The notes under the pieces: model-generated
The model's input: only the letters and a program-made list of their open reading frames with translations
Told to the model about the DNA's origin: nothing
The model's database searches: none
Program-made: the position numbers and the translations under genes
From: Oehlia diaphana
Taxonomy: Eukaryota; Glomeromycota; Glomeromycetes; Glomerales; Glomeraceae
Assembly: GCA_003833135.1 (NCBI GenBank)
Contig: QZLH01001147.1
Coordinates: forward strand, 16,968 to 31,519
Direction: 5' to 3'
Length of the DNA stretch: 14,552 nucleotides
Shown: piece after piece, positions 1 through 14,552 of the stretch
How the letters are laid out: every line of letters starts with the position of its first letter
Position numbering within the stretch: position 1 is the stretch's first letter

Positions 1-270
1 GTTTTTGTAAATGAAAGATAAAAAAATAGTTAAAATAAAAAAAAAAAACAAAAAATTCTAATAAATAAATAAAAAACCGTAACACGTAATAATCAACATG
101 TTGCATAAATCAGAAATCCTATTTAAAAATTGGAAATGTTATTAAAAATAGCCAAAAATCGGCAATTCTATGCTAAAATAGCCAAAAATCGGAAATCCTA
201 TTTTAAAATAGATAAATCCGATTTTTTTTCATTTGACCTGTGATTTGCCGGTCTCAATAAGAAACTCATC
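1..270. repeat. AT-rich repeat DNA abutting the truncated recombinase gene
   Basis: This stretch has no gene that I can support. It opens with A-rich tracts (1-75). An 18-base word starting AAAATAGCC occurs at 145-162 and again at 175-192, a 30-bp period, with a weaker third copy from about 205. The 14-bp palindrome CTATTTTAAAATAG lies at 198-211, nested inside a 9-bp inverted repeat (AAAATCGGA at 185-193, TCCGATTTT at 217-225), so a compact hairpin or cruciform is possible. Similarity of the neighbouring minus-strand gene to its own family fades at about 274, so this block is probably the edge of a different repeat or insertion that removed the gene's 3' end. The transposon class is not identifiable. 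Confidence 0.6.
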
Positions 271-273
271 TTT

Positions 274-972
274 TTTCAAAAATATATTAAACTATAACAC
301 TCCAGGCTTTCCAGGGTCTCGTAACTGACCAGAAGAAATTGCTTCCTGAATCCATGTAAGCAATTGACTAGCCCGCTCCTCGTTCTTTTCTGGTGATCTA
401 AATATTTGAGGAATGTCTTGTTGTCCCCGGTTTTTTGCATATCCAGTTACACCTCCATTAGATATACGCAAGGTTTTTATTTCAGCAGGACGGATGCAGA
501 GCATTATCGTTATATCAGTAAGGGCTTGTAAGCCAGGGGCTCTGGATACATCATATATATCCAATCTCTCTTTAACCGATTCTAACGAGAAGTAGTCTGG
601 AAAATCGATCCCTTTATCTTCACATTGTTTACTACACTTCTTTTAGATTTTATTAGCTGAGCGAGTTATGTCTAGAATCAATGTAGCTGAGATAATTTTT
701 TCTGAGGCTTTGAGGTTTCGCAATTCTCTTCGAAGCCTAGAGATTCATGATAAACCAGCGTTAGCATTGGAGGCTGACTCAGTTAAGGCTTTTGCTATAA
801 CTTTTACTTCTACTTCACCAAGATTATCCCGAATGATATGCTGGGCCAAATCTCTAATAGTCTCTTTTGGTAAAATTTGACATGTATTCACTGTATCCAG
901 TTCTGCTTCTTGGGTGATATCAGGAGTATCAGGAACATTAGGTAAGGCTCCTCCTTTTTCCCGACTAGCTGT
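274..972 (-). pseudogene. Tyrosine-recombinase-like gene, 3' part (beyond the hAT insertion)
   Basis: This is the continuation of the gene that starts at 3699. It reads in one frame from 963 down to about 274 with in-frame stops at 745-747 (TGA), 643-645 (TAA) and 292-294 (TAG). The segment 564-292 contains LCIRPAEIKTLRI, which resembles box I of tyrosine recombinases (the catalytic Arg followed by a Glu and a Leu-rich turn); the Arg would be near residue 225 of the intact protein. The conserved His-x-x-Arg box and the nucleophilic Tyr are not present, because the gene runs into unrelated repeat DNA just after the TAG at 292, where a Trp codon would fit. If the assignment is right, the protein integrated or excised the element by DNA strand exchange. 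Crypton-type or virus/plasmid integrases are the nearest concepts. The family call rests on one motif and on context, so it is moderate. The reading frame itself is strong, because it joins exactly to the 5' part. Confidence 0.6.
965..972. repeat. Left target-site duplication (8 bp)
   Basis: CTAGCTGT here pairs with CCAGCTGT at 3497-3504, a 7/8 match, immediately outside the terminal inverted repeats. Eight-base duplications are typical of hAT transposons. The single difference is a CpA to TpA change in this copy. Confidence 0.85.
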
Positions 973-984
973 TAGTGTTCTGAA
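973..984 (+). repeat. Left terminal inverted repeat of the hAT-like element
   Basis: TAGTGTTCTGAA matches the right end (reverse strand) at 11 of 12 positions. The mismatch is T here against C in a CpG there. Confidence 0.85.
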
Positions 985-1187
985 CGGATCGAATCAGATC
1001 GGATTTGAGATGAATCTAATCTGATCTAAATTCAGATCAAAAAAAATTAGATTTGATCCGATCCGTATTCAGATCAAAAATAATTGGATCCGATCTGATC
1101 CAAATCCGTAATAAACTTGATTTAATTCAGTCTGAATCTAATTCAGATAAAACCGATCTGATCCGAATCTGATCTGAATCAAAAATT
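985..1187. repeat. Left subterminal GATC-rich repeats
   Basis: Short words such as GATCTGATCC, GATCAGATC and CCGATCTGATC recur in both orientations at about 10-20 bp intervals. The 13-mer CGAATCAGATCGG at 990-1002 occurs again at 3466-3478, near the opposite end, in the same orientation. Clustered subterminal repeats are known transposase-binding sites in hAT elements such as maize Ac; that role here is an inference. Confidence 0.75.
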
Positions 1188-3280
1188 AAAAAAACGTTTC
1201 ACAACGTTTTTTTAATTTAAGCGAAAAAACCGTTGCGAAATGGTTTATATAACTAAAAAAACCGTTTCGCAACAGTTTTTTAGCGATTTTAATATAAACC
1301 GTTGCGAAACGGTTTATATAATTAAAAAAAACCGTTTTGCAACGGTTTTTTAAATTGTTTTAATATAAACCGTTGCGAAACGGTTTAAATAACTAAAAAA
1401 ACTGTTTTGCAACAGTTTTTTAACGATTTTAATATAAACCGTTGCAAAATGGTTTATATAACTAAAAAAAACAATTTTGCAACAGTTTTTTAAATTGTTT
1501 TAATATAAACCATTACAAAATGGTTTAAATAACTAAAAAAAACTGTTTCGCAACGGTTTTTTAACGATTTTAATATAAACCGTTGCGAAACGGTTTACAT
1601 AACTAAAAAAACCATTTCGCAACGGTTTTTTTAAATTGTTTTAATATAAACCATTGCGAAATGGTTTAAATAACTAAAAAAAACCGTTTTGCAACAGTTT
1701 TTTTAAATGTTTTTAATATAAACCATTGCAAAATAGTTTATATAACTAAAAAAACTGTTTCGCAATGGTTTTTTAACGATTTTAATATAAACCATTGCAA
1801 AATGGTTTATATAACTAAAAAAAACCATTTCGCAACGGTTTTTTAACGATTTTAATATAAACTATTGCGAAATGGTTTATATAACTAAAAAAAACCATTT
1901 CGTAACGGTTTTTTAAATTGTTTTAATATAAACTGTTACGAAATGGTTTAAATAACTAAAAAAAACCGTTTCGCAATGGTTTTATAATGATTTTAATATA
2001 AACTATTGCGAAATGGTTTATATAACTAAAAAAACCATTTCGCAACGGTTTTTTAAATTGTTTTAATATAAACCGTTGCGAAATGGTTTAAATAACTAAA
2101 AAAAACCATTTCGCAACAGTTTTTTTAAATGTTTTTAATATAAACTGTTGCGAAATGGTTTATATAACTAAAAAAACCGTTTCGCAACGGTTTTTTAATG
2201 ATTTTAATATAAACCGTTGCAAAACAGTTTATATAACTAAAAAAAACCATTTCGCAACAGTTTTTTAACGATTTTAATATAAACCGTTGTGAAATGGTTT
2301 ATATAACTAAAAAAACCATTTCGCAACGGTTTTTTAAATTGTTTTAATATAAACCATTGCGAAATGGTTTAAATAACTAAAAAAACCATTTCGCAACGGT
2401 TTTTTTAAATGTTTTTAATATAAACCGTTGCAAAACGGTTTATATAACTAAAAAAAACCGTTTCGCAACGGTTTTTTAATGATTTTAATATAAACTGTTG
2501 CAAAACAGTTTATATAACTAAAAAAAACCATTTTGCAACAGTTTTTTAACGATTTTAATATAAACCGTTGTGAAATGGTTTATATAACTAAAAAAACCAT
2601 TTCGCAACGGTTTTTTAAATTATTTTAATATAAACCGTTGCGAAATGGTTTAAATAACTAAAAAAACCATTTCGCAACGGTTTTTTTAAATGTTTTTAAT
2701 ATAAACCGTTGCAAAACGGTTTATATAACTAAAAAAAACCGTTTCGCAACAGTTTTTTAACGATTTTAATATAAACCGTTACAAAATGGTTTATATAACT
2801 AAAAAAAACTGTTTCGCAACGGTTTTTTAAATTGTTTTAATATAAACCGTTGCAAAACGATTTAAATAACTAAAAAAAACCGTTTCGCAACAGTTTTTTT
2901 AAATGTTTTTAATATAAACTGTTGAAAAACGGTTTATATAACTAAAAAAAACTGTTTCGCAACGGTTTTTTAACGATTTTAATATAAACTGTTGTGAAAC
3001 GGGTTATATAACTAAAAAAAACCATTTCGCAACGGTTTTTTAACGATTTTAATATAAACCGTTGCAAAACGATTTATATAACTAAAAAAACCATTTTGCA
3101 ACAGTTTTTTAAATTGTTTTAATATAAACCGTTGTGAAATGGTTTAAATAACTAAAAAAACTGTTTCGCAACAGTTTTTTAACTATTTTAATATAAACTG
3201 TTTCGCAACGGTTTTTTAATGATTTTAATAAAAACCGTTGCGAAACGGTTTAATAAAAAACATTACGCGAAACATTTTTT
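1188..3280. repeat. Hairpin satellite array, about 30 units of about 70 bp
   Basis: Each unit holds two 14-bp motifs that are reverse complements of each other, CCGTTGCGAAACGG and CCGTTTCGCAACGG, separated by a spacer reading about TTTATATAACTAAAAAA. Units are joined by a T-rich linker ending TTTTAATATAAAC. Each motif is itself a stem-loop (CCGTT/AACGG with a GCGA or TCGC loop), lengthened by flanking A and T runs. Linker spacers fall into types (AAATTG, AAATGT, AATGA/AACGA, AACGA). Units following an AAATTG-type linker also carry TTTAAATAAC instead of TTTATATAAC. AAATTG-type (or AAATTA) units start at 1362, 1502, 1643, 1925, 2065, 2346, 2627, 2839 and 3121, giving mostly 140- or 281-bp spacing, which is a higher-order repeat. 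Variation among units is mainly C/T and G/A at CpG positions. The array has no open frame of note and is not a CRISPR. Confidence 0.97.
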
Positions 3281-3484
3281 ATTCGGATCCGATCCAGATC
3301 CGATCTGAATCCATTCGAATCTGATTTGATCCGATCCGATTTGGATGAATAACTGATCCGATCTGATTTGATCTGTAACGGATCAAATTTTTTTGATTCA
3401 GATCAGATCACGGATCATAAAAAATCTGATCCGATCTGATCCGTTTCGGATTAGATCCGCAGATACGAATCAGATCGGTTTTTT
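3281..3484. repeat. Right subterminal GATC-rich repeats
   Basis: This is the counterpart of 985-1187, with dense GATCCGATC, GATCTGATC and GATCAGATC words in both orientations. The 13-mer CGAATCAGATCGG is at 3466-3478. The block ends at the right terminal inverted repeat. Confidence 0.75.
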
Positions 3485-3496
3485 TTCGGAACACTA
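3485..3496 (-). repeat. Right terminal inverted repeat of the hAT-like element
   Basis: Read on the minus strand this is TAGTGTTCCGAA, the inverted partner of 973-984 with one mismatch. It directly abuts the right copy of the 8-bp target duplication. Confidence 0.85.
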
Positions 3497-3504
3497 CCAG
3501 CTGT
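3497..3504. repeat. Right target-site duplication (8 bp)
   Basis: CCAGCTGT, partner of CTAGCTGT at 965-972. On the minus strand these bases are codons of the interrupted gene (Thr-Ala-Gly). Confidence 0.85.
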
Positions 3505-3699
3505 TAGCTTAGGAATTAATGCAAATACCTGTTCTTTGCTAAAGTTATATCCCTTTTGGAGACATCGTCGTGCCTGATCTCTCTTAACTTTATCCGTCAA
3601 AAGGATATCCAATACCAGAACGTGGTTTCTAAGCTCTTCGATACTCATCTCGGTATTGAGCTCATTTTCTATTACATATCTAGTAGCGATGCCAGCCAT
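3497..3699 (-). pseudogene. Tyrosine-recombinase-like gene, 5' part (before the hAT insertion)
   Basis: This is the amino-terminal 68 codons of the gene whose remainder is at 972-274. The start is an ATG at 3699-3697, preceded by an A/C-rich leader and a TATA-like element at 3758-3750. The visible protein (beginning MAGIATRYVIENEL) is polar and probably helical. It ends at LIPKLTA, where the hAT-like element entered. An open frame continues into the transposon to 3451, but those last residues (RSDSYLRI) come from the GATC-rich transposon end and are not original. The frame at codon Gly-68 continues exactly into the codons at 963 and below once the insertion is discounted. The start lies 247 nt downstream of the primase-helicase stop on the same strand, so the two genes were probably carried together. 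No domain is recognised in this part alone. Confidence 0.7.
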
Positions 3700-3749
3700 G
3701 TTATTTATTTGGTAGTATGTAAGATATTTGGTTATACCTAGGTTGTTTG

Positions 3750-3758
3750 TTATATACT
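3750..3758 (-). promoter_or_regulatory. TATA-like element before the recombinase gene
   Basis: AGTATATAA on the minus strand lies about 50-57 nt upstream of the ATG at 3699. A very similar AGTATATAG precedes the primase-helicase start. The assignment is by sequence and spacing only. Confidence 0.45.
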
Positions 3759-3945
3759 ATGCGGAGAAAGTTCAATTCGAAAAAATAAATAATTATTCTG
3801 ACACTTTTTTTCTTTGTGTTACTTCGAAAAAATATAAGATATACTTTAACCAAGTAAATCGATCCACTATCAAGAGAATAAGGACTACCCTACAGTCTTT
3901 AGACAAGGGGACAGGCGAGAGGGCTGGCTTTTTATTCGTTCTTTA

Positions 3946-4836
3946 TCAAAGCATACCATTCTCTTGGAGTGTGCTTACCATTTTTTTCTATTCCTCATCA
4001 GTATCAAGCCAAGAGGATGTGATCCCATCTTCCTCGAGAGAATAGCGGATTATTTCTTCTCCTATTAATCTTTCCTGTACTTTCATGTCCATATATTCTT
4101 TGGGATCTTCTTCAGTCTCTATAGCCTAACCACATATTCGTGAATTAGTTTTCATCTTATCACAGAATGCAATAGAATCGAGTCAGTCATTTTCGATAAT
4201 GGTCACGAAGGCATCTGGATTCTCTCCAAGTTCAACTGCCTTTTTTCTGAGATGTTCATCTCGCTGAGCTCTGGCCAGAAGTATGGCAGATGATACTTCA
4301 TTAGGCTTAGGAGGATCAGCTTCTTTAGGAGGCGTATTCATTACTTTACTTATGGATTTGATAAATTTGGGTTTATCGGTTACTGGCTCAGACGGATTAG
4401 AAGTCTCAGAAGCCTCGGAAGTCCCAGATGTTGAGGCAACTGGGAGGTCGGCTTGCTCTGACACATAGTCAAAGAGAGCTTGGATCGAATTACCCTGTTT
4501 ATTCACCTTCTTATCTTTACTAGTACTAAGTGGAGGCGTATTCTTTTCTGAAAGAGGCGAGATTATTTTCTGGGGAATAGTTTTTAGTACATTGAATATG
4601 GGTATATCTGCTGTCTCATTGGTCAGCAACTCATCTTGAAGTATATCATCAGAAAATTCTTCGATATCACCTAAGCCAGATTCACGGAGCTTAACTATGA
4701 TCTTGGAGCGGTTAAGTATATATTGCCATTCTCTTTTCCCACCACCTGTCCGCACTTGTTTGCTTTCAATACCAATTTCAGAAAACTTTTTTCCAGCAAC
4801 TTTACTAGTCAATAGTTTTTCACCATTCTCTCTACA
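3946..4836 (-). pseudogene. Primase-helicase, C-terminal segment
   Basis: The frame continues from the helicase straight through the TAG at 4837-4839, which stands where a Trp codon would fit between YLE and CRENGEK. The first 60 or so residues (VAGKKFSEIG, then GGGKREWQYI) look like the winged-helix-like domain that follows D5-type helicases. After that comes a low-complexity acidic, Pro/Ser/Thr-rich linker (SGTSEASETSNPSEP is typical). Then comes a charged helical stretch, and after the TGA at 4183 a tail with EYMDMKVQERLIGEEI. Further stops are TAG 4126, TAG 3988 and TGA 3946. There are no frame changes in this segment, only substitutions. Its job in the intact protein is unknown; DNA binding by the winged-helix-like part is an inference. 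Confidence 0.75.
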
Positions 4837-5832
4837 CTATTCAAGATACTTTTGATATAATGATGTACAACTTTGCGCGGATGTTCCAGCCTCAGCCCTA
4901 GATGTAATATAGTTAATTATAAATCGAATGGGACTAGGAAGCTGATCACATATTGTATCTACTTTCATTTTTGTAGAAAGAATTTTTCCTGGACTCCAAT
5001 TTGATAAATCATGGATAAGAAGGTATGACATGACTACCCCAGGTGCATCAGGATGGTCTAGAATATCCCCTAACCGGTCGAAATATGGTATATTACCTCT
5101 ACAACATGCAGAGATATCAAAACAGATTATACGAGAATCACCTATATCTATTTTGAACAGAGCATCCTGATTGCTTATAACCATATACCCAGCATAATCA
5201 TTTGTTCGTATAGTTTCAAGACCCTTACGCTCTATAGCTACCATTCGTTCTGTTATGAGTGATTTGAGATGTCTGTTAAATCTATGCCATTCCCCACTAG
5301 ACATTCCAGTCTCATTCATAACAATAAGCTTTTGAGCTTGAATGGCACTATTAAAACGCCTGAGGATTTTTTTCAAATCCGAAGTTGTAAAATGGAGGTG
5401 TGACCCCAAGACTTTATCACCAATAAAGTCAGTAATAATATTTTTTCCATACTGTTGTAATGTAGATTTTAGTACCAAGATTGTCCAGAGCTTCATCTCT
5501 GGTTTCTGTACTAAATACGCCCACCAGTTCCAGATATATTTGTCAAGTCTTTCATCCCCACTGCAGATTACGTTCTTTACATGCCAGAAAATCAGATTCA
5601 TGATTTCTTTATTAATTTCTGGTACTGGCTTAGCCAAAAATCCTATGAAAAGATTAAAGAACTTTGTATCATGAGCTGGAGTATTTAGCGAATATGGAAG
5701 AAAATTAATATTGCGGTAAAGGATTAGACCTTTGGTAACCGCCTGATCTATTAAATTAATTAACTTTACTGGCTCTCCTCCTAGCTCAATTAAGTTAACT
5801 TCATACTTGGCAAGATTTAGTTTTGGCGTCAT
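4837..5832 (-). pseudogene. Primase-helicase, helicase domain (SF3/D5, NrS-1-like)
   Basis: This is the longest open segment, 331 codons from an internal Met. Landmarks are: HVKNVICSGDE then YIWNWWAYLVQKPE, the conserved approach to the P-loop; a P-loop region reading LKSTLQQYGKN, which keeps Gly-Lys-Asn but lacks the usual extra glycines and Ser/Thr; a Walker-B-like LIVMNETG, with Asn-Glu where Asp-Glu is usual; HLKSLITE and IERKGLE; the sensor-like MVISNQD; and a C-terminal region with DIGDSRIICFDIS, YFDRLGDILDHPDAPGVV, a TKMK turn and PIRFIINYI. The order and wording match the NrS-1-type helicase domain as I remember it. The segment is flanked by a one-base loss at about 5838 upstream and the TAG at 4837 downstream, so it is a fragment of the larger pseudogene and not an independent gene. 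Confidence 0.85.
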
Positions 5833-6550
5833 ATCAAATATAGTCCACCATTCATATCTTCCGTTTTGAGTACCTATAATCTTGATGACGTTTGAATACA
5901 GGCGACTGTTGCCTGAATTGCGTCATAAATCTCATTACGAGAAAATTTCCGTCCAGATATACACATATCTATTAGATCACCCCATATAAAGTAATCGTTA
6001 GGATTTAAAATTCTGGATTGTTCTAGTTTTACGGGACTTGAAAGCTTTTGTTCTCGATCCAAGGCAGTTTCGCTAATAGTAAGTTTTTTCGAAAGCTTTC
6101 CAAACCTGAGTTGCCTATCTTGGTTTGCTCAGTAGCAGAAAAAGCTATAGGATTTTTTATTTTGTATTATATAGGCGTTATCACTATCATGTTCTCGGTC
6201 ACATATTGGATAGTGTGATGGAGAGATGCGTGATAGTGGAAATTTATCAGGAAAACTATCAGATGGATATGAGAGATTATATCCTTTAATGCTAGCTTCT
6301 TTAAGCAATATCTCAACCAGTTCGAATTCAACTACGGTTGTCTCATTACTTATGCTAACATATTTTACGCTTTCCATCTCTGGAACAATCAGGAGAAGAC
6401 TGTTCTCGATGACTTCTGATTCATCGTTAGGTGGGCGGATCATGAAATCGAAGATAGATCCATCTTTTGGATATATAGCTTTTTTTACTCGTACATGAGA
6501 GTTGGTTTTTTCATCAAACTTAGATCTTCCAAGCATTCGCAAGGAGAATG
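5833..6550 (-). pseudogene. Primase-helicase, zinc-motif and linker segment
   Basis: Two open segments (6542-6129 and 6062-5874) lie in one frame, separated by a TGA at 6129-6131 between FFCY and ANQ. The protein contains MLGRSKFDEKTNSHVRVKKA, FDFMIRPPNDE, then HYPICDREHDSDNAYI followed by SYSFFCY. That spacing of Cys, His and later Cys resembles the zinc-binding motif after the AEP core in herpesvirus UL52 and PrimPol-type primases. The position expected to be the first Cys is Tyr (TAT, one G-to-A change from TGT). A TAG at 5874-5876 replaces a probable Trp before VLKTEDMNGG. Just after it the frame shifts by one lost base near 5838 and enters the helicase segment. At the upstream edge, a (CGAA)n microsatellite-like stretch near 6550 marks another frame change. 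Confidence 0.75.
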
Positions 6551-7096
6551 TTCGTTCGTTTATTTGCTATGTTATCGATAATACTATTTACCTGTAGAGA
6601 CGCCAGAACTTTTTTATGAATGAGCTCAGTAAAATGCAACTTGAGCAATACTTTTAAGTCTCATGCTGTAAGTGGAGATATGGAGAGACATTTTTTTTGC
6701 ATCACTACTACTAGCAATAGTTATAGTTTTATGATCCCAGTCTGAAAATATATCTTTACACACTTTTCCAAAAGCGCAGACAAGTAAAATCTTGTATCTC
6801 TTTGCCTGTTAGTTTAGGTTCAATAGAATTATACACCTCTCATGGCAAATCAAAGTTTATAATGGGCTAGAGTGGCTCATCACCATCAATAAATTCATGT
6901 AAAGAATGGCCTTTACGTTCTGAGAGTATGGCTTCTATTCCATCCTCATTATCCGCGCCTAGAAAATACCTTGGTCTAACACTATCATCACGAATTTTAT
7001 ATTGGCATACTCCTATATCGGAGGCTTTAAATCTACAATAGTACGGGCAGACGTGTCGAAGGAGAGGAACTCTGAAAGCTCTGAATATTCAGTCAT
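6551..7096 (-). pseudogene. Primase-helicase, AEP primase domain
   Basis: The start is an ATG at 7096-7094 (MTEYSELSEFL), 42 nt after a TATA-like element. Reading on through frame changes near 7020, 6795 and 6632 gives GVCQYKIRDDS, RPRYFLGADNEDG, HEFIDGDEPL, then PIINFDLP, EVYNSIEPKLTGKEIQ, ILLVCAFGKVCKDIF, TITIASSSDAKKMSLHIST and ELIHKKVLASLQVNSIID. SLHI fits AEP motif II (Ser-x-His). PIINFDLP sits where motif I (paired catalytic acids) belongs, with Asn in place of the first acid. In-frame stops are TAG 6867-6869 and TGA 6840-6842. No single open frame here exceeds about 50 codons, so this domain is easily missed. The call depends on these motifs and on continuity with the helicase. Confidence 0.7.
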
Positions 7097-7137
7097 TTTT
7101 TTGGATATTATATCGCAAATATACAGTTTGAGAGAAA

Positions 7138-7145
7138 CTATATAC
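7138..7145 (-). promoter_or_regulatory. TATA-like element before the primase-helicase gene
   Basis: GTATATAG on the minus strand (AGTATATAG including the next base) lies 42-49 nt upstream of the ATG at 7096. The recombinase gene has a near-identical AGTATATAA in a similar place, which suggests related promoters for the two genes. Confidence 0.45.
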
Positions 7146-7282
7146 TCTGGAAGAAAAAAGTTTAAAATGAAAATTAATTCCGAACTATATAGATCGATAC
7201 ATAAATCAACAATCCATAGTTATTAAAAATGGTATTTTATTGATGTACTTATATCCACAGGAGTAGTAAGATTTGCAATTGA

Positions 7283-7459
7283 GGATGCTACCATCTGGAA
7301 GGATGTTTTATTCATCGCAATTCTCCTTCTCAGGTATTTTGCAAAGAATGTGGAAAATTATCTTATTCCGGATATGGATATTACGATAATCATGCTAGAA
7401 AGCACTGTAAAAGGGAACAATACCATCAGAAAAGGATGGTAGACTTAGCTTTGACGTAG
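7283..7459 (+). CDS. Short open frame with a C2HC zinc finger
   Basis: Fifty-eight codons are open between the TGA at 7280-7282 and the TAG at 7457-7459. The central part reads FCKECGKLSYSGYGYYDNHA and then RKHCKR, giving Cys-x2-Cys-x13-His-x4-Cys, a credible C2HC zinc finger with a basic end. A third Cys-rich patch (GCYHLEGCF) lies before it. There is no ATG, so this is either an exon (no splice site is clear) or a remnant of a larger gene. It is transcribed away from the primase-helicase, with 186 nt between the primase start and the first codon, and the iteron modules begin about 45 nt downstream. A nucleic-acid-binding accessory protein of the same element is possible, but this is inference. 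Confidence 0.4.
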   Translation, partial: GCYHLEGCFIHRNSPSQVFCKECGKLSYSGYGYYDNHARKHCKREQYHQKRMVDLALT

Positions 7460-7499
7460 ATAGTGGTAGGCAATTTAGAAGTAAACAAAAATAATACAG

Positions 7500-8122
7500 T
7501 TTGTCACTAGAAAAAAGATGTCACTGTTACTGAGAAAATCTTGGTGACCTCTTGGTGACGCTCTTGGTAACAAAATTTATAGCTATTTCGCAATTCCAGA
7601 GCTATTGAATAGTTTACCGATGGGTGTCACCATGTCACCAAGAGTCACTAAGAAAATTTGGACTTCTTTTCTTTTTATTTTTTTAGCACAAATGTCATAT
7701 ATTTATCATACTATATCCCTATGGCTTTTGAGCGATAGCCCATCGCTGAAATTTTTTGGTGACACTCTTGGTAACGCTCTTGGTGACAAAATTTATAGCT
7801 ATTTCGCATTTTTAGAGCCATCAAAAGGTTTCTAGATAGGTGTTACTATATCACCAAGAGTCACTAAGAAATTTCGGACTTCTTTACTTTTTTTTTTTTT
7901 TCTATAGGAGTATTAGCATATATCATACATAGTATACCATAAATATATAGTATAGAAAAATTTTGATTTTTCCCTAGAACTTTACTTTTTCTTAGTGACT
8001 CTTAGTGACATAGTGACAGATATAAAGGAATACAACCGAGCATTCTAAAACTTTGAAAAAAGCATACAAGGGTGTCACTAAGAGCGTCACTAAGAGCGTC
8101 ACTAACAAATTTTCTTGGTGAC
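7500..8122. repeat. Iteron-like modules with TTRGTGAC in opposed orientation
   Basis: Three modules each have a cluster of TTGGTGAC/TTAGTGAC words followed, about 65-75 bp later, by a cluster of the reverse complement GTCACCAA/GTCACTAA. Module 1: 7541, 7552 and 7564, then 7634 and 7644. Module 2: 7756, 7768 and 7780, then about 7850 and 7860. Module 3: 7992, 8002 and 8011, then 8074, 8086 and 8098. Within clusters the words repeat every 10-12 bp, including GTCACTAAGAGC twice in a row with a third partial copy at 8074-8105. One more TTGGTGAC is at 8115, and single GTCAC words are at 7503 and 7520. Modules 1 and 2 are a direct 216-bp tandem duplication (from about 7541). Phased short direct repeats in opposed clusters resemble initiator-binding sites of replication origins. 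The location behind the primase-helicase start fits, but the function is inferred. Confidence 0.8.
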
Positions 8123-8320
8123 AGCATATATACAGAATAGATTCGATATTTTTTTCCTATAACTATACTTTTACTAAAGACACTAGGGACACGAAATCGG
8201 TATACATAAACAGGCAACAAATGGGATTACAAAATCAGCACACTTCTGGCAACGACTATAGTATACAGAACTAGTGACAACCGGTTAACTAAATTTGCTA
8301 TATTATGACAGAGGGTGTTC
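8123..8320. other. AT-rich spacer
   Basis: No gene, RNA or repeat that I can support. A short minus-strand frame overlapping 8002-8220 is built largely from the iteron words and is not considered coding. Confidence 0.5.
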
Positions 8321-8406
8321 GGTACCGTAATAGGATCACGTGATTATGATGTAGTAAGGCGCAGGTACCGTAACAGGATCACGTGATCATGATGCAGTAA
8401 GGCGCA
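8321..8406. repeat. 43-bp tandem duplication with a CACGTG palindrome
   Basis: Copy 1 (8321-8363) and copy 2 (8364-8406) are identical except at three positions, each a TA in copy 1 and a CA in copy 2. Each copy starts GGTACCGTAA and holds GATCACGTGAT. In copy 2 the centre GATCACGTGATC (8378-8389) is a perfect 12-bp palindrome containing an E-box (CACGTG). E-boxes bind bHLH factors in eukaryotes, but no gene nearby can be linked to this one. The difference pattern is discussed in the findings. Confidence 0.9.
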
Positions 8407-8469
8407 GTATGAATTCGCTTAATTTCAGCCAGATCTTTGGATACAATAACTCAGCATTCAAGTGATCAA

Positions 8470-8530
8470 CCTTTCTGGTTCTCTGCCAGTTCTCTGCCAG
8501 TTCCATGACAGTTCCAGGAGAGTTCTGGAC
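8470..8530. repeat. Small AGTT-type tandem repeat
   Basis: AGTTCTCTGCC is repeated, then degenerates into AGTTCCATGAC and AGTTCCAGGAG, a run of 11-bp units. No function is evident. Confidence 0.6.
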
Positions 8531-9050
8531 ACTACTAGGTTACTATCATAGCACCAACTTGGATCCTTCAGATCATGTGTCCCAAAGATCGGCCAGAAAT
8601 TATGCCATAGTGCTAACCAAATTTAGACGTGAATCTACTGCGATCTACTGCGCCACCTAACACGATATTTTTTTATCATATTTCAGCATTTTGATGGATA
8701 ACAAAATAAGTGAAAAAGGAAGCACTCTTGAATCCTTAACAGGCAGTCAAAGAGGCACAGAATGGTAAAAACTTCATTATAAAACTTAGAATCCAAATAA
8801 TTGCAGACAGGCCGGACCTTCAACATAGAATTTAATAACCAATCAACCATAGAACCCCAATAACATAAATTATATTAGAAAATAATTATTAACACACAGA
8901 ACCAAACAAAAATAGGTACATTTCGATTATTTAATAATAGTAATATTTAGGTTATTTAATTACATGATCACAAATAATAAATAGAAAAAAGCTAAAGAAA
9001 AGCGAATTTAAAGGGAAGGAATATAGTAAGAAAAATAACTAGGTATACAA
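8531..9050. other. Intergenic AT-rich DNA without a supported gene
   Basis: Both strands lack long open frames. The only hint of a gene is a splice-acceptor-like CTAAC then T-rich then TTTCAG ending at about 8687. It is followed by an ATG (8694) opening a 24-codon frame (MDNKISEKGSTLESL and so on) that ends at 8768. This is too short to call. Confidence 0.4.
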
Positions 9051-9055
9051 AATTG

Positions 9056-9250
9056 TCACAAACAGGTTATTTAGTTAGAGTGTTTAATCATATTTAGGTT
9101 ATTAACTTTAGATTATTTAGATATATTTAAATTATTTAGTTATATTTAGATTATTTATAACCATATTTAGATTATTTAGTTATAGTTAGATTATTTATAG
9201 TCATACTTAGATTATTTAGTTATAGTTAGATTATTTTATTACTAAATAAC
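9056..9250. repeat. Dimeric minisatellite built on TAGATTATTTA
   Basis: TAGATTATTT recurs at 9109, 9147, 9168, 9187, 9208 and 9227, with degenerate copies before and between. Spacing alternates 21, 19, 21, 19. Units ending AGTTATA alternate with units ending ATARYCATA, so the true period is a 40-bp dimer. The right edge turns over into the inverted word ACTAAATAACC at about 9241-9251, so the array ends in an inverted repeat of its own motif. Confidence 0.85.
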
Positions 9251-9259
9251 CTAGTCTAA

Positions 9260-9780
9260 GCCGTAATATCGATAATGTTCTTCCACCTCCTGCTCCTCCA
9301 TATTATATGATTTAATATTTTCTTTTACTTATCATAAACGGCTAACATAATATCATATAATATCGTATCAATATTAGTTTGTTATATTGAAAATTATCGT
9401 AACAATATTTGCTTGAAGAAATATCAAAGTGGTATCATTTTGAAACCTGACCTGAAATTTTTTTTCAGGTCAGATATCATTACAATAATGATAATTTTCA
9501 AAAAAAATGTGAATAAATATGATATTGTATCAATATTGGTTCAGTATATCAAAAGGATAGTTCAATATTATTAAAACAATGATAATTGTTAAAAAAACGT
9601 GAAATAAAGATGATGTTGACATGATACTGTTAAAATGTTAACTCGGTGTGTTGATGATATTGTTGAAATTGACAATGTTTTTTAAAAAAAAGTGAAAAGA
9701 TTTCAGAAAGACATTTATTTGAAGAAATATCAAATCAAAATTACTTTGATCACTTTAACTAATAAATATAAACACTTTAT
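9260..9780. repeat. Degenerate AT-rich repeats
   Basis: ATGATAATT(T/G)T followed by an A-run and GTGAA is repeated at about 9487 and 9579, in longer blocks about 90 bp apart. TTGAAGAAATATCAAA occurs exactly at 9413-9428 and 9719-9734. These look like old, drifted tandem duplications. No coding potential is seen. Confidence 0.5.
9447..9473. repeat. 11-bp perfect inverted repeat
   Basis: CTGACCTGAAA (9447-9457) and TTTCAGGTCAG (9463-9473) are perfect inverted repeats separated by TTTTT. It can form a stable hairpin on either strand. No gene end lies beside it, so a terminator role is not argued. Confidence 0.8.
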
Positions 9781-10989: not shown

Positions 10990-12171
10990 TTATTTATTTT
11001 TCTTCCAGCTGTTTACAACTTCATTCACATCTGATGACTCATCGTATTATATTGATCCAGATATTTTAGAATTAAATTGATTTTGGTCCTCCAAGGATTT
11101 GTAAATGTGATCCTCTTTGCTATTCTCTTTAATATTATTACCAAAATCATTATTACCAATCTTTTTGCGTTTCCAATAAACATATTTCTCAACCCACCAG
11201 TTCACCAGGAAAATATCAGTCCTTTGTAAAGGAATTTTTGCAGGTAAAACATTTTTATGATATTTTGCTTGTCTTAAATATTCTTTAACGCTTCTTATCT
11301 TATTAACCTGACCTTGTTTCAGTTGTTGCTTCAAATTAATTGTAATTGTATATTCTATGCCATCGTTTAGACCTTAAGAACGCTGATTGATATAATTAAC
11401 ATTGACATACTGAAACGCTTTCCTGACACTCCTTATTTCCTCTTCATTCGTATAGAAATTAATACTCCCTTCAGTAGTACTATTAGATGTGCAAAATGTT
11501 ACTCAGTCTTTAAGTATTGTAATTGATTTAGAGAATGTAGGGAAGGTAGCGGCGGATGTCAGTGCTGCAATCGTAAACACTCCATTTTCAAAAAAAACAT
11601 TTTTGATATCATTTGAAGGTGAAAAGGTATTTAATAAGTCATCGTTGTCAGCAAATATGGAATTAATCAACGCGTTATTATGAGAAGAGGTAATTGACGT
11701 ATTATTGATAGTTGAAAGGGAAGGCGTACTTGACGTGTCATTATGAGAAGAGGTAATTGATGTGTTATTGATGGTTGAAAGGGAAGGTGTATTTGACGTA
11801 TTATTATAAGAAGAGGTAATTGTTACGTTGAAAGTAATTGACGTGTTATTGTGAGAAGAGGTGATTGATATATTATTATCGGTTGAAAGGGATGTCTTAT
11901 TGTGAGAAGAGGTGATTGACATATTATTATCGGTTGAAAGGGTAGAAGTTGTCATGTTATTATCGGTTGGAAGGATGGAAGTAGTTGACATGTTATTGTT
12001 GGTTGAAGAGGATGTTGAATTAGCTCATTTTTTATTTGGGCGAGAATTATAAAAATGAGCTTTATGATCATTGCTTCTACAAATTTGACATGAATGTGGA
12101 CAATCCTTATAAGTATATGCAGGGTTAACCGAAAGACAATTCATATATTTTCTTTTTTTTGTTGGCATCAT
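10990..12171 (-). pseudogene. Zinc-knuckle/Ser-Thr-rich protein gene with four in-frame stops
   Basis: A single minus-strand frame of 394 codons starts at the ATG at 12171-12169 and ends at the TAA at 10990-10992. Internal stops are TGA 12025-12027, TGA 11503-11505, TAA 11374-11376 and TAA 11047-11049, with no frame change at all. The start, MMPTKKRKY, has a nuclear-localisation-like KKRK. Next, CPHSCQICRSNDHKAHFY resembles a zinc knuckle (Cys-x2-Cys-x4-His-x4-Cys) with Tyr in the last Cys position. Then comes about 150 residues of Ser/Thr/Asn/His repeats (NNTSITSSHN type). The C-terminal part reads NEEEIRSVRKAFQYVNVNYI, LKQQLKQGQVNKIRSVKEYL, LPAKIPLQRTDIFLVNWWVE and KYVYWKRKK, then an acidic end. 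No enzyme domain is recognised. A nucleic-acid-binding, perhaps transposon-encoded protein is possible. All stops can be explained by single C-to-T changes (from CGA or CAA). Confidence 0.6.
11690..11990. repeat. Minisatellite encoding the Ser/Thr/Asn repeats
   Basis: GTTGAAAGGGAAGG recurs at 11711 and 11774 (63-bp period, 21 codons). Shorter variants follow at about 11881, 11932 and 11962. The period is a multiple of three, so the repeat keeps the frame of the minus-strand gene. This argues that it expanded while coding was still constrained. Confidence 0.8.
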
Positions 12172-14016: not shown

Positions 14017-14311
14017 TTAAGTTAACAGAGGACAGCCCCCTGTAGAGTAAGTAGTGTAAATTTGCCAGTTCTGGCGCACCCAATATTTTAGCCTCCTCAG
14101 CCCATATGACCTTACCATTAAGTTTCCCATGGTACCCGCTAACCAGCCATTTGAGCTTACCTCGGGCAAATTGCTTTCAAAACTGTCCACAAGGCTAAAT
14201 TTAACCATAAAACCTAACCATCGCTTCCTACCCTCCAATCTGCTCAGTAAGCCAACCCTGCTATATAAAAATCAGGCGCACCGCTCTGCTATCATTCTTA
14301 GCTTCCTATAG
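14017..14311. other. GC-richer block open on both strands
   Basis: A minus-strand frame (14238-14017, 73 codons, with WLAGTMGNLMVRSYGLRRLK) and a plus-strand frame (14129-14311, 60 codons) overlap. Base composition is clearly less AT-rich than the rest of the window, which suggests a sequence of different origin, possibly a transposon fragment or a promoter block. I cannot choose a coding strand. Confidence 0.25.
14262..14270 (+). promoter_or_regulatory. TATA box-like sequence
   Basis: TATATAAAA lies 69 nt before an ATG at 14331 that is followed directly by GTAAGT, a consensus splice donor (14335-14340). A gene with a tiny first coding exon could begin here and continue beyond the window. 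No acceptor or second exon is demonstrable before 14552. Confidence 0.35.
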
Positions 14312-14400
14312 CCGCTAGGATAGCAAAAAGATGCGTAAGTTTATAGCCTTTTAGCGTTATTTCGAGGGCATATAGTATGTAATAAAAAAAGGCATGCTAG

Positions 14401-14420
14401 AATCACTCTAAAAAGTGATT
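14401..14420. repeat. 7-bp inverted repeat
   Basis: AATCACT and AGTGATT are perfect inverted repeats with a 6-base loop (CTAAAA). Minor structure; function unknown. The surrounding minus-strand frame (14547-14341, 68 codons) is not supported as a gene. Confidence 0.6.
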
Positions 14421-14552
14421 TAATAGGATACAGGCATATTGCATGGTAGCCTTCAAAGTCGAATTCAGCCATGAAAACAAAAGGTAATCTAAAGCAATTT
14501 TGAGTTATTCTAACAGCACCAAGTACGCAAAAATAAAATGCTCTCAAACTCA

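What the first reader, a model, noticed from the sequence alone, without database searches (positions are those of the whole stretch)
274..8122. Dead integrated element combining an AEP primase-helicase, a recombinase-like gene and iterons
On one strand, an iteron region is followed by a gene of about 1,050 codons with AEP primase, zinc motif and NrS-1-like helicase, then by a gene with a tyrosine-recombinase-like box I. Primase-helicase plus tyrosine recombinase is a known pairing in virophage-like, transpoviron-like and plasmid-like elements. I do not know of a described fungal element with exactly this layout. It may represent an uncharacterised lineage of self-replicating integrative DNA elements in this genome, here preserved only as a wreck.
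Basis: partly seen in the sequence, partly recalled or inferred. Interest (0 to 1): 0.8.

Follow-up and report, generated by a model that had tools for sequence, protein, structure and literature searches.

The report
Primase-recombinase mobile element in mycorrhizal fungi
A fungal genome carries many copies, the one here broken, of what looks like a mobile DNA element with its own replication enzyme, a recombinase-like gene, origin-like repeats and a precise palindromic end; relatives of its two main genes occur in several mycorrhizal fungi, and I found no description of it as an element.

Summary
On the minus strand, an iteron region (window 7480-8130) precedes a decayed primase-helicase gene (7043-3949) and a decayed recombinase-like gene (3699-244). 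The latter is split by a 2.5-kb hAT-like insertion (972-3496) and lacks its C-terminus, including the candidate tyrosine. In the window's own genome both genes recur: 13 of 23 other primase contigs also carry the recombinase-like gene, in 11 on the same strand downstream. The pair also appears as consecutive locus tags in two Rhizophagus irregularis strains and in Gigaspora rosea. The helicase matches NrS-1 phage primase-polymerase. The recombinase-like family matches no library model, yet conserves the R-K-R-H-Y set of tyrosine recombinases. New here: one element end, a palindrome of about 50 bp followed by short repeats that share its arm sequence; two subfamilies stop at it sharply (10 and 12 further places). 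A small divergent zinc-binding-like gene sits beside the iterons. Leucine-rich-repeat and Crinkler-like genes follow collinearly in many copies; whether they are cargo is open. The other end, the target site and any free form were not found. The two genes reassort between copies.

The parts
9241..9264 (.). Left end of the element: inner stub of the terminal palindrome (...CCTAGTCTAAGCCGT); the outer arm is missing here and unrelated DNA follows
   Evidence: 10 places in 9 other contigs stop matching at window 9262-9264 (40 of 132 candidates scored); palindrome seen when 10 fetched ends, C1651 and the window were lined up
9104..9240 (.). Subterminal short tandem repeats (TTAGATTATTTAG...)
   Evidence: TRF array 9107-9236; sharing of repeat and palindrome arm was counted in C1651, C1013 and C1060, not in the window
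8285..8762 (.). Conserved block between the terminal repeats and the iterons, with a 43-bp tandem duplication at 8321-8407
   Evidence: repeated hits to this part in many contigs; TRF
7480..8130 (.). Iteron region: short repeats TTGGTGAC / GTCACTAA on both strands around A+T-rich DNA, origin-like
7283..7456 (+). Remnant of a small divergent gene for a Cys/His-rich (zinc-binding-like) protein
   Evidence: open frame; relatives in C1651, C1060 and C1013, and a diverged one in C1062
3949..7043 (-). Primase-helicase gene (AEP-like N-terminus, zinc motif, DUF5906/NrS-1-like SF3 helicase), broken by stops and a frame change
5146..5469 (-). DUF5906 helicase core
   Evidence: Pfam PF19263 E 7.4e-17, residues 152-259 of frame 4837-5922
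3496..3699 (-). N-terminal piece of the tyrosine-recombinase-like gene (P0122 residues 1-68)
244..975 (-). Middle piece of the tyrosine-recombinase-like gene (P0122 residues 65-314), with box I CIRPAEIKTLRI and the AKNR lysine; box II and the tyrosine are absent
972..3496 (.). Independent hAT-like insertion in the recombinase-like gene: TIR TAGTGTTC/GAACACTA, 8-bp flanks CTAGCTGT (964-971) and CCAGCTGT (3497-3504), filled with a 70-bp palindromic tandem array (1187-3214)
   Evidence: absent from C1651, C1440 and C1166; of the 39 other places in the leading rows, 38 stop at window 3496-3497 and one at 3499 (40 of 161 candidates scored); array; ends read

Best explanation
The window holds a dead copy of a family of integrated, plasmid-like mobile DNA elements of arbuscular mycorrhizal fungi. 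Proposed working: the element carries its own origin (iterons) next to a divergent gene for a small zinc-binding-like protein that probably binds them. The primase-helicase opens and primes the origin, and host polymerase extends. The tyrosine-recombinase-like protein acts on the palindromic end and the repeats that copy its arms, to move the DNA into and out of chromosomes, most simply as a circle. Shown: gene order, relatives, motifs, iterons, one precise palindromic end, arm/repeat sharing, low dN/dS in both genes. Inferred: which protein binds which repeat, replication, circularity, recombination, mobility itself. Not shown: the other end and the target site.
For: Co-occurrence: 13 of the 23 other contigs with a primase match also have a recombinase match; in 11 it lies on the same strand downstream, ten of them 1.5-2.0 kb and C1337 5.9 kb from the end of the primase match; C131 and C96 do not fit. 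Consecutive locus tags: RhiirA4_477442/477441, RhiirC2_795548/795549, Gigaspora rosea C2G38_2160558/2160557. Helicase: sequence match to NrS-1 at E 2e-7; Foldseek top hit NrS-1 6k9c at E 1e-9, then mpox E5 and ASFV PrimPol. Recombinase: in 51 family members, R226 43 of 48, K251 42 of 42, R322 43 of 50, H351 49 of 50, Y363 49 of 49 (gaps set aside). The best profile alignment to 81 Xer proteins spans 154 columns with R, LR, H and Y in register (0 of 200 shuffles that long). One end: sharp limit at window 9262-9264 in 10 other places and at the C1013 palindrome in 12 other contigs. dN/dS 0.11-0.22 for the recombinase gene (6 of 6 pairs) and 0.13-0.44 for the primase gene (14 of 15 pairs; one had too few codons), open stretches only, several pairs with saturated dS.
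Against: The right end, a target-site duplication and an empty site were not found. The score of the Xer alignment is not above shuffles (67 of 200 reach it; HHalign probability 0.3), an unrelated control (recombinase versus primase profile) scored 16.4 against 15.5 for Xer, and the lysine is not in register. No usable Pfam or PHROG family is seen in 51 members (25 of 54 and 25 of 47 families shown). PF00589 lists five other loci of this genome, not these. The AlphaFold model of the catalytic domain is poor, and the primase-helicase superposition has a low TM-score (about 0.2 by query). The two genes do not clearly share a history (637 of 5000). Ten primase contigs have no recombinase match. 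Left ends also occur on contigs without a primase match.
Confidence: 0.62

Rival explanations
1. Linear replicon with hairpin telomeres. The roughly 50-bp palindrome is a replicated-telomere (telRL-like) site, and the tyrosine-recombinase-like protein is a telomere resolvase that turns it into covalently closed ends, as in phage N15, which pairs a replication protein with protelomerase.
Confidence: 0.15
2. Host multigene cluster spread by segmental duplication. The genes are former mobile-element genes now copied along with leucine-rich-repeat and Crinkler-like neighbours, with no element-driven movement.
For: Leucine-rich-repeat, ORF3 and Crinkler-like blocks follow the recombinase gene collinearly in many contigs, and the shared stretch runs on past 10 kb without a limit; the block is also found where no recombinase match is listed.
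Against: Segmental duplications would not be expected to share an exact palindromic end next to unrelated flanks. 31 of 39 primase segments other than the window's hold stops, yet open stretches show low dN/dS.
Confidence: 0.15
3. Relic of a dsDNA virus (polinton-like virus, virophage or nucleocytovirus).
For: Primase-helicase fold hits to mpox E5 and ASFV PrimPol; a Pox_D5 domain match in one copy at E 8.5e-7; endogenous asfarvirus-like DNA is known in R. irregularis strain 4401 (PMC10640383, passages).
Against: No capsid, packaging ATPase or viral protease family among the open frames given to Pfam (a weak retropepsin-like frame in C1062 only). That paper did not detect D5 in five strains, so these genes are not ordinary virus D5.
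Confidence: 0.05

Closest known systems
NrS-1 phage primase-polymerase and DUF5906 helicases of bacterial mobile elements
   Same: Same helicase family by sequence, with fold hits; primase fused to helicase
   Different: Fungal nuclear genome; every hit that carries an organism name is from Glomeromycotina, and 8 weak unnamed hits (P0110-P0117) have domain partners that I read as bacterial
PrimPol-PV1 elements of bacteria and archaea (PMC5862659, passages)
   Same: Integrated elements that pair an AEP primase, often with a helicase domain, with a tyrosine or serine integrase
   Different: Those have direct-repeat att sites, often in tRNA genes; here a palindromic end, and no site known; that paper groups NrS-1 outside PrimPol-PV1
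Crypton and Starship elements of fungi
   Same: Tyrosine-recombinase-type elements in fungal genomes; Starships carry cargo genes
   Different: To my knowledge they lack a primase-helicase; their recombinase families (recalled as DUF3504 and DUF3435) are not among the families shown for 51 members
Phage N15 linear plasmid-prophage
   Same: Replication protein, tyrosine-recombinase-like enzyme and a palindromic site of about 50 bp
   Different: There the palindrome lies beside the protelomerase gene; here it is a terminus about 2 kb upstream of the primase gene; resolvase activity untested
Ectocarpus endogenous phaeoviruses (PMC13236599, passages)
   Same: Tyrosine recombinase with one end bearing a conserved inverted repeat; also a telomere resolvase and a telRL-like site
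   Different: Giant virus with many genes; not a small plasmid-like element

Membership tests
NrS-1/D5-type primase-helicase | DUF5906/SF3 helicase core | tested here: met
   PF19263 E 7.4e-17 in the window, 1.3e-19 and 3.5e-20 in relatives; NrS-1 in PDB by sequence and as top Foldseek hit
AEP primase | hhDhD motif I, sxH motif II, primase fold | tested here: inconclusive
   IDFDLP and SSSDAKKMSLHIS are present in open relatives; fold hits to PrimPol structures, with low TM-score and moderate model confidence; no Pfam primase domain in the N-terminal frames
Tyrosine recombinase superfamily | R-K-(H/K)-R-(H/W)-Y active site | tested here: met
   R, K, R, H and Y conserved in 51 relatives; the position of the first His is Ser, Arg or Lys. 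The window copy itself lacks R322, H351 and Y363.
Tyrosine recombinase superfamily | profile or fold match to known members | tested here: inconclusive
   HHalign to Xer not above shuffles or an unrelated control in score, but in register over 154 columns; no usable Pfam or PHROG match; model too weak in the catalytic domain
Protelomerase / telomere resolvase | resolves a palindrome into hairpins | not testable with these tools
Crypton | Crypton-type recombinase domain (recalled as DUF3504) | tested here: inconclusive
   Not among the 25 of 54 families shown for 51 members; the unseen ones match one member each at E 0.058 or worse
Crypton | compact element without replication genes (recalled) | tested here: not met
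   A primase-helicase gene lies upstream of the recombinase gene
Starship | captain tyrosine recombinase (recalled as DUF3435) as first gene at one end, direct-repeat target sites | tested here: inconclusive
   No such family among those shown; at the known end the first genes inward are the zinc-binding-like one and the primase; the other end is unknown
Polinton-like virus / virophage | capsid and packaging genes | tested here: inconclusive
   None among the frames searched; complete elements not in hand
hAT (the insertion at 972-3496) | 8-bp target duplication and terminal inverted repeats | tested here: met
   TAGTGTTC ends, 8-bp flanks matching at 7 of 8; fixed 3' limit in other copies; transposase gene not sought

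The most novel reading that the evidence does not exclude
A eukaryotic nuclear lineage of linear, hairpin-ended plasmids: iterons, primase-helicase and a recombinase-derived telomere resolvase acting on terminal palindromes whose arms evolve together with subterminal repeats. It would have spread through mycorrhizal fungi and picked up Crinkler-like and leucine-rich-repeat genes as cargo, swapping modules between copies as phages do.
Probability: 0.13. Interest if true: 0.92.

Novelty: new variant of a known kind. Interest (0 to 1): 0.66.

Why it matters
Much of the repeat content of Rhizophagus genomes is unclassified (two thirds of transposable elements before curation, PMC11075540, passages). 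One genome study discards 'helicase-primase' genes as transposon-related, with no element named in the passages I saw (PMC8647823). This gives those genes a home: an apparent replicating element with a defined end. If the downstream Crinkler-like and leucine-rich-repeat genes are cargo, it would also offer a route by which effector-like gene families spread in these symbionts. The palindrome makes the mechanism directly testable.

Tried and rejected
Named families for the recombinase-like gene: Pfam and PHROG scans of 51 members and a genome scan with PF00589 gave nothing usable (the scans show 25 of 54 and 25 of 47 families). HHalign against lambda Int and TelN found nothing credible, and an unrelated control scored as high as the Xer match. 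A first shuffle test was invalid: the aligner failed and the script re-read an old lambda-versus-Xer result; it was repeated correctly. R-to-K spacing like that of telomere resolvases was considered and dropped, because P0122 has a 6-residue insert there that the other 50 rows lack. Co-diversification of the two genes was tested and not found. The 70-bp array inside the recombinase gene was rejected as the element's own iterons: it lies in an unrelated insertion. A 9-bp TSD reading (AGCTGTTAG, written in note 1) was replaced by the 8-bp one because only that makes the inverted repeats symmetrical and fits the family's 3' limit. A right end was sought by extending C1651, C1318 and C1062; similarity ran on to a contig end and to a run of N. 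tRNA search: none.
Full report
What the window is. The window is G000:C1098:16968-31519 of a 108.8-Mb, 1672-contig genome. Proteins of this genome resemble those of Rhizophagus (up to 92% identity); the window's own 361-aa helicase frame reaches 83% over most of its length at best, so the species is not established. Left of the window lies a run of N.

The primase-helicase gene. On the minus strand, 7043-3949 corresponds to nearly the whole of a 1048-aa relative, in two frames with 13 and 4 stops. DUF5906 scores E 7.4e-17. An AlphaFold model of the relative (mean pLDDT 65) hits the NrS-1 C-terminal region first (E 1e-9), then mpox E5 and ASFV PrimPol; TM-scores by query are only about 0.2, so domain arrangement is not fitted. 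The AEP motif I is DFD in relatives and NFD in the window. The search with the C1062 frame lists 117 proteins; those with an organism name are all from Glomeromycotina: Rhizophagus, Diversispora, Entrophospora, Cetraspora, Funneliformis, Scutellospora, Gigaspora and Glomus.

The recombinase-like gene. 3699-3496 and 975-244 are two pieces of one gene, 91% and 88% identical to a 387-aa relative; residues 315-387 find no match in the window. The search with the C1651 frame gave 378 relatives, 120 listed; one is called 'integrase: PROVISIONAL' in Gigaspora margarita and one 'integrase' by JGI. I aligned 49 of the 120 listed, chosen by me for length and spread, with two frames of this genome (A1). 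R226, K251, R322, H351 and Y363 are conserved in 43 of 48, 42 of 42, 43 of 50, 49 of 50 and 49 of 49 ungapped rows. The exceptions at R226 and R322 are Cys or His, as CpG decay would give (inference). The usual His before R322 is Ser, Arg or Lys. Profile alignment with 81 Xer proteins puts box I, box II, His and Tyr in register over 154 columns, a length not reached in 200 column shuffles, but its score is ordinary (67 of 200 shuffles reach it; an unrelated profile scored 16.4 against 15.5). I call it tyrosine-recombinase-like on the motif evidence; no library names it.

The insertion. Relatives C1651, C1440 and C1166 are continuous where the window has 972-3496. The inserted piece begins TAGTGTTC, ends GAACACTA and is flanked by CTAGCTGT and CCAGCTGT. 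In one search (40 of 161 candidates scored), of the 39 leading rows other than the window's, 38 end at query 297 or 298 and one at 300. It belongs to an abundant hAT-like family and is filled with a 70-bp palindromic array.

Recurrence as a unit. Matches to the helicase frame lie on 23 other contigs and matches to the recombinase piece on 36 others (lower bounds). Thirteen contigs have both. In eleven (C1062, C338, C1318, C1060, C808, C1648, C1651, C1337, C1119, C188, C1573) the recombinase match is downstream on the same strand, ten of them 1.5-2.0 kb from the end of the primase match and C1337 5.9 kb; C131 and C96 do not fit. C1440 and C1050 add a primase tail by DNA match upstream of the recombinase gene. 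Ten primase contigs lack a recombinase match. The pair recurs as adjacent locus tags in R. irregularis A4 and C2 and in Gigaspora rosea, on one contig length each (strand and order not visible there). Open stretches of both genes show dN/dS below one (0.11-0.22 in 6 of 6 pairs; 0.13-0.44 in 14 of 15 pairs; several saturated). Distances of the two genes over ten copies correlate weakly (r 0.28, 637 of 5000 permutations as high): for example C1318 and C808 differ by 7% in the primase region but 24% in the recombinase region. Order is kept while alleles reassort.

Upstream anatomy. Between the primase gene and the end lie, in order, a divergent gene for a Cys/His-rich protein of about 90 residues (C1651, C1060, C1013; diverged in C1062; remnant in the window), the iterons, a conserved block, short tandem repeats and a palindrome. 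Iteron octamers exceed 200 Markov resamples in the five copies read. They are GTCACTAA/TTGGTGAC in the window, TAGTGACA in C1651, C1060 and C1013, and ATAGGGAC in C1062, the copy whose zinc-binding-like protein also differs. That pairing rests on one copy.

The end. With window 7460-9600 as query, 10 places in 9 other contigs stop at window 9262-9264 (40 of 132 candidates scored). Ten ends were fetched and lined up with C1651 and the window. Eight of the twelve end in ...GGCT at the close of a palindrome AGCCGTTTATGACTAAATAATATAA/TTATATTATTTAGTCATAAACGGCT or a near variant; C1651 is a few bases short, two are degenerate, and the window keeps only AGCCGT. The flanks differ; a duplication cannot be judged from one end. 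The 46-bp core with up to 3 mismatches occurs at 13 places in the genome, against none for the reversed control. C1013 has its own palindrome (27613-27665), unlike in the arms but alike in the A+T core. With that region as query, matches on 12 other contigs begin at its base 1-3 (40 of 117 candidates scored), among them C1337, which also carries the primase gene at the expected distance. In C1651, C1013 and C1060 the palindrome arm (C1060 keeps one arm) recurs 5, 7 and 10 times, at up to 2 mismatches, in the adjoining array of the same copy and 0 or 1 times in the arrays of the others. Arms and repeats thus change together, as binding sites for one protein would.

Downstream. A coiled-coil-like ORF3 follows the recombinase gene in many contigs (37 matches), then a leucine-rich-repeat gene (PF13516 E 1.6e-7) and, in the block beyond, a Crinkler N-terminal domain frame (PF20147 E 4.2e-11). 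Fourteen contigs appear both and in the primase or recombinase lists (C1651, the query's own, C1062, C1440, C1050, C1318, C1150, C808, C338, C771, C1119, C1230, C97, C1073, C1008), and in all 14 the block is downstream on the same strand. The block is also found on contigs without such a match, and only 40 of 205 candidates were scored. C1318 and C1062 stay similar up to a run of N. I cannot say whether these genes are cargo.

Mechanism. I favour a plasmid-like element that integrates by its recombinase, with the palindromic end as part of the recombination site. A conserved inverted repeat at one end, with a tyrosine recombinase, is reported for Ectocarpus phaeoviruses (PMC13236599, passages). 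The hairpin-telomere reading deserves a test: the palindrome is N15-like in size, and the best structural match of the helical domain is protelomerase TelA, at a Z that the tool warns may be a common arrangement.

Literature. Searches listed no paper that I recognise as describing this element; listings were cut, and only open-licence PubMed Central papers are held. PMC8647823 filters out helicase-primase genes as transposon-related (passages). PMC11075540 curates Rhizophagus elements, and its main text holds neither 'primase' nor 'helicase'. PMC10234402 notes glomeromycotan replication-origin-binding genes of potential viral origin (passages). PMC6431247 foresees new elements from joining a nucleic-acid-primed polymerase, a primase and a recombinase (passages).

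Noticed in passing
972-3496: hAT-like non-autonomous-looking element filled with a 70-bp palindromic tandem array; a very abundant family (161 candidate places).
   Followed up: partly
14050-14537: Repeat 81% identical to C1008:33982-34478, where it directly abuts the end of the primase match.
   Followed up: no
11503-12024: Ser/Thr/Asn-rich repetitive frame (ITSSHNNTS units) with strong GC skew (0.56) over 11501-12000.
   Followed up: no
L040:662-1147: In C1062 the place after the recombinase gene holds a weak retropepsin-like frame (gag-asp_proteas E 0.008) instead of ORF3.
   Followed up: partly
L072:381-931: C1013 carries a long inverted repeat with TGATTGGTGAC units just outside the element's left palindrome.
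   Followed up: no
L077:2808-3239: Crinkler effector N-terminal domain frame (PF20147 E 4e-11) in the block that follows the recombinase gene.
   Followed up: partly
window 9264 against C1395, C40, C627 and others: Left ends are found on contigs with no primase match, so short or other derivatives of the element may exist.
   Followed up: partly
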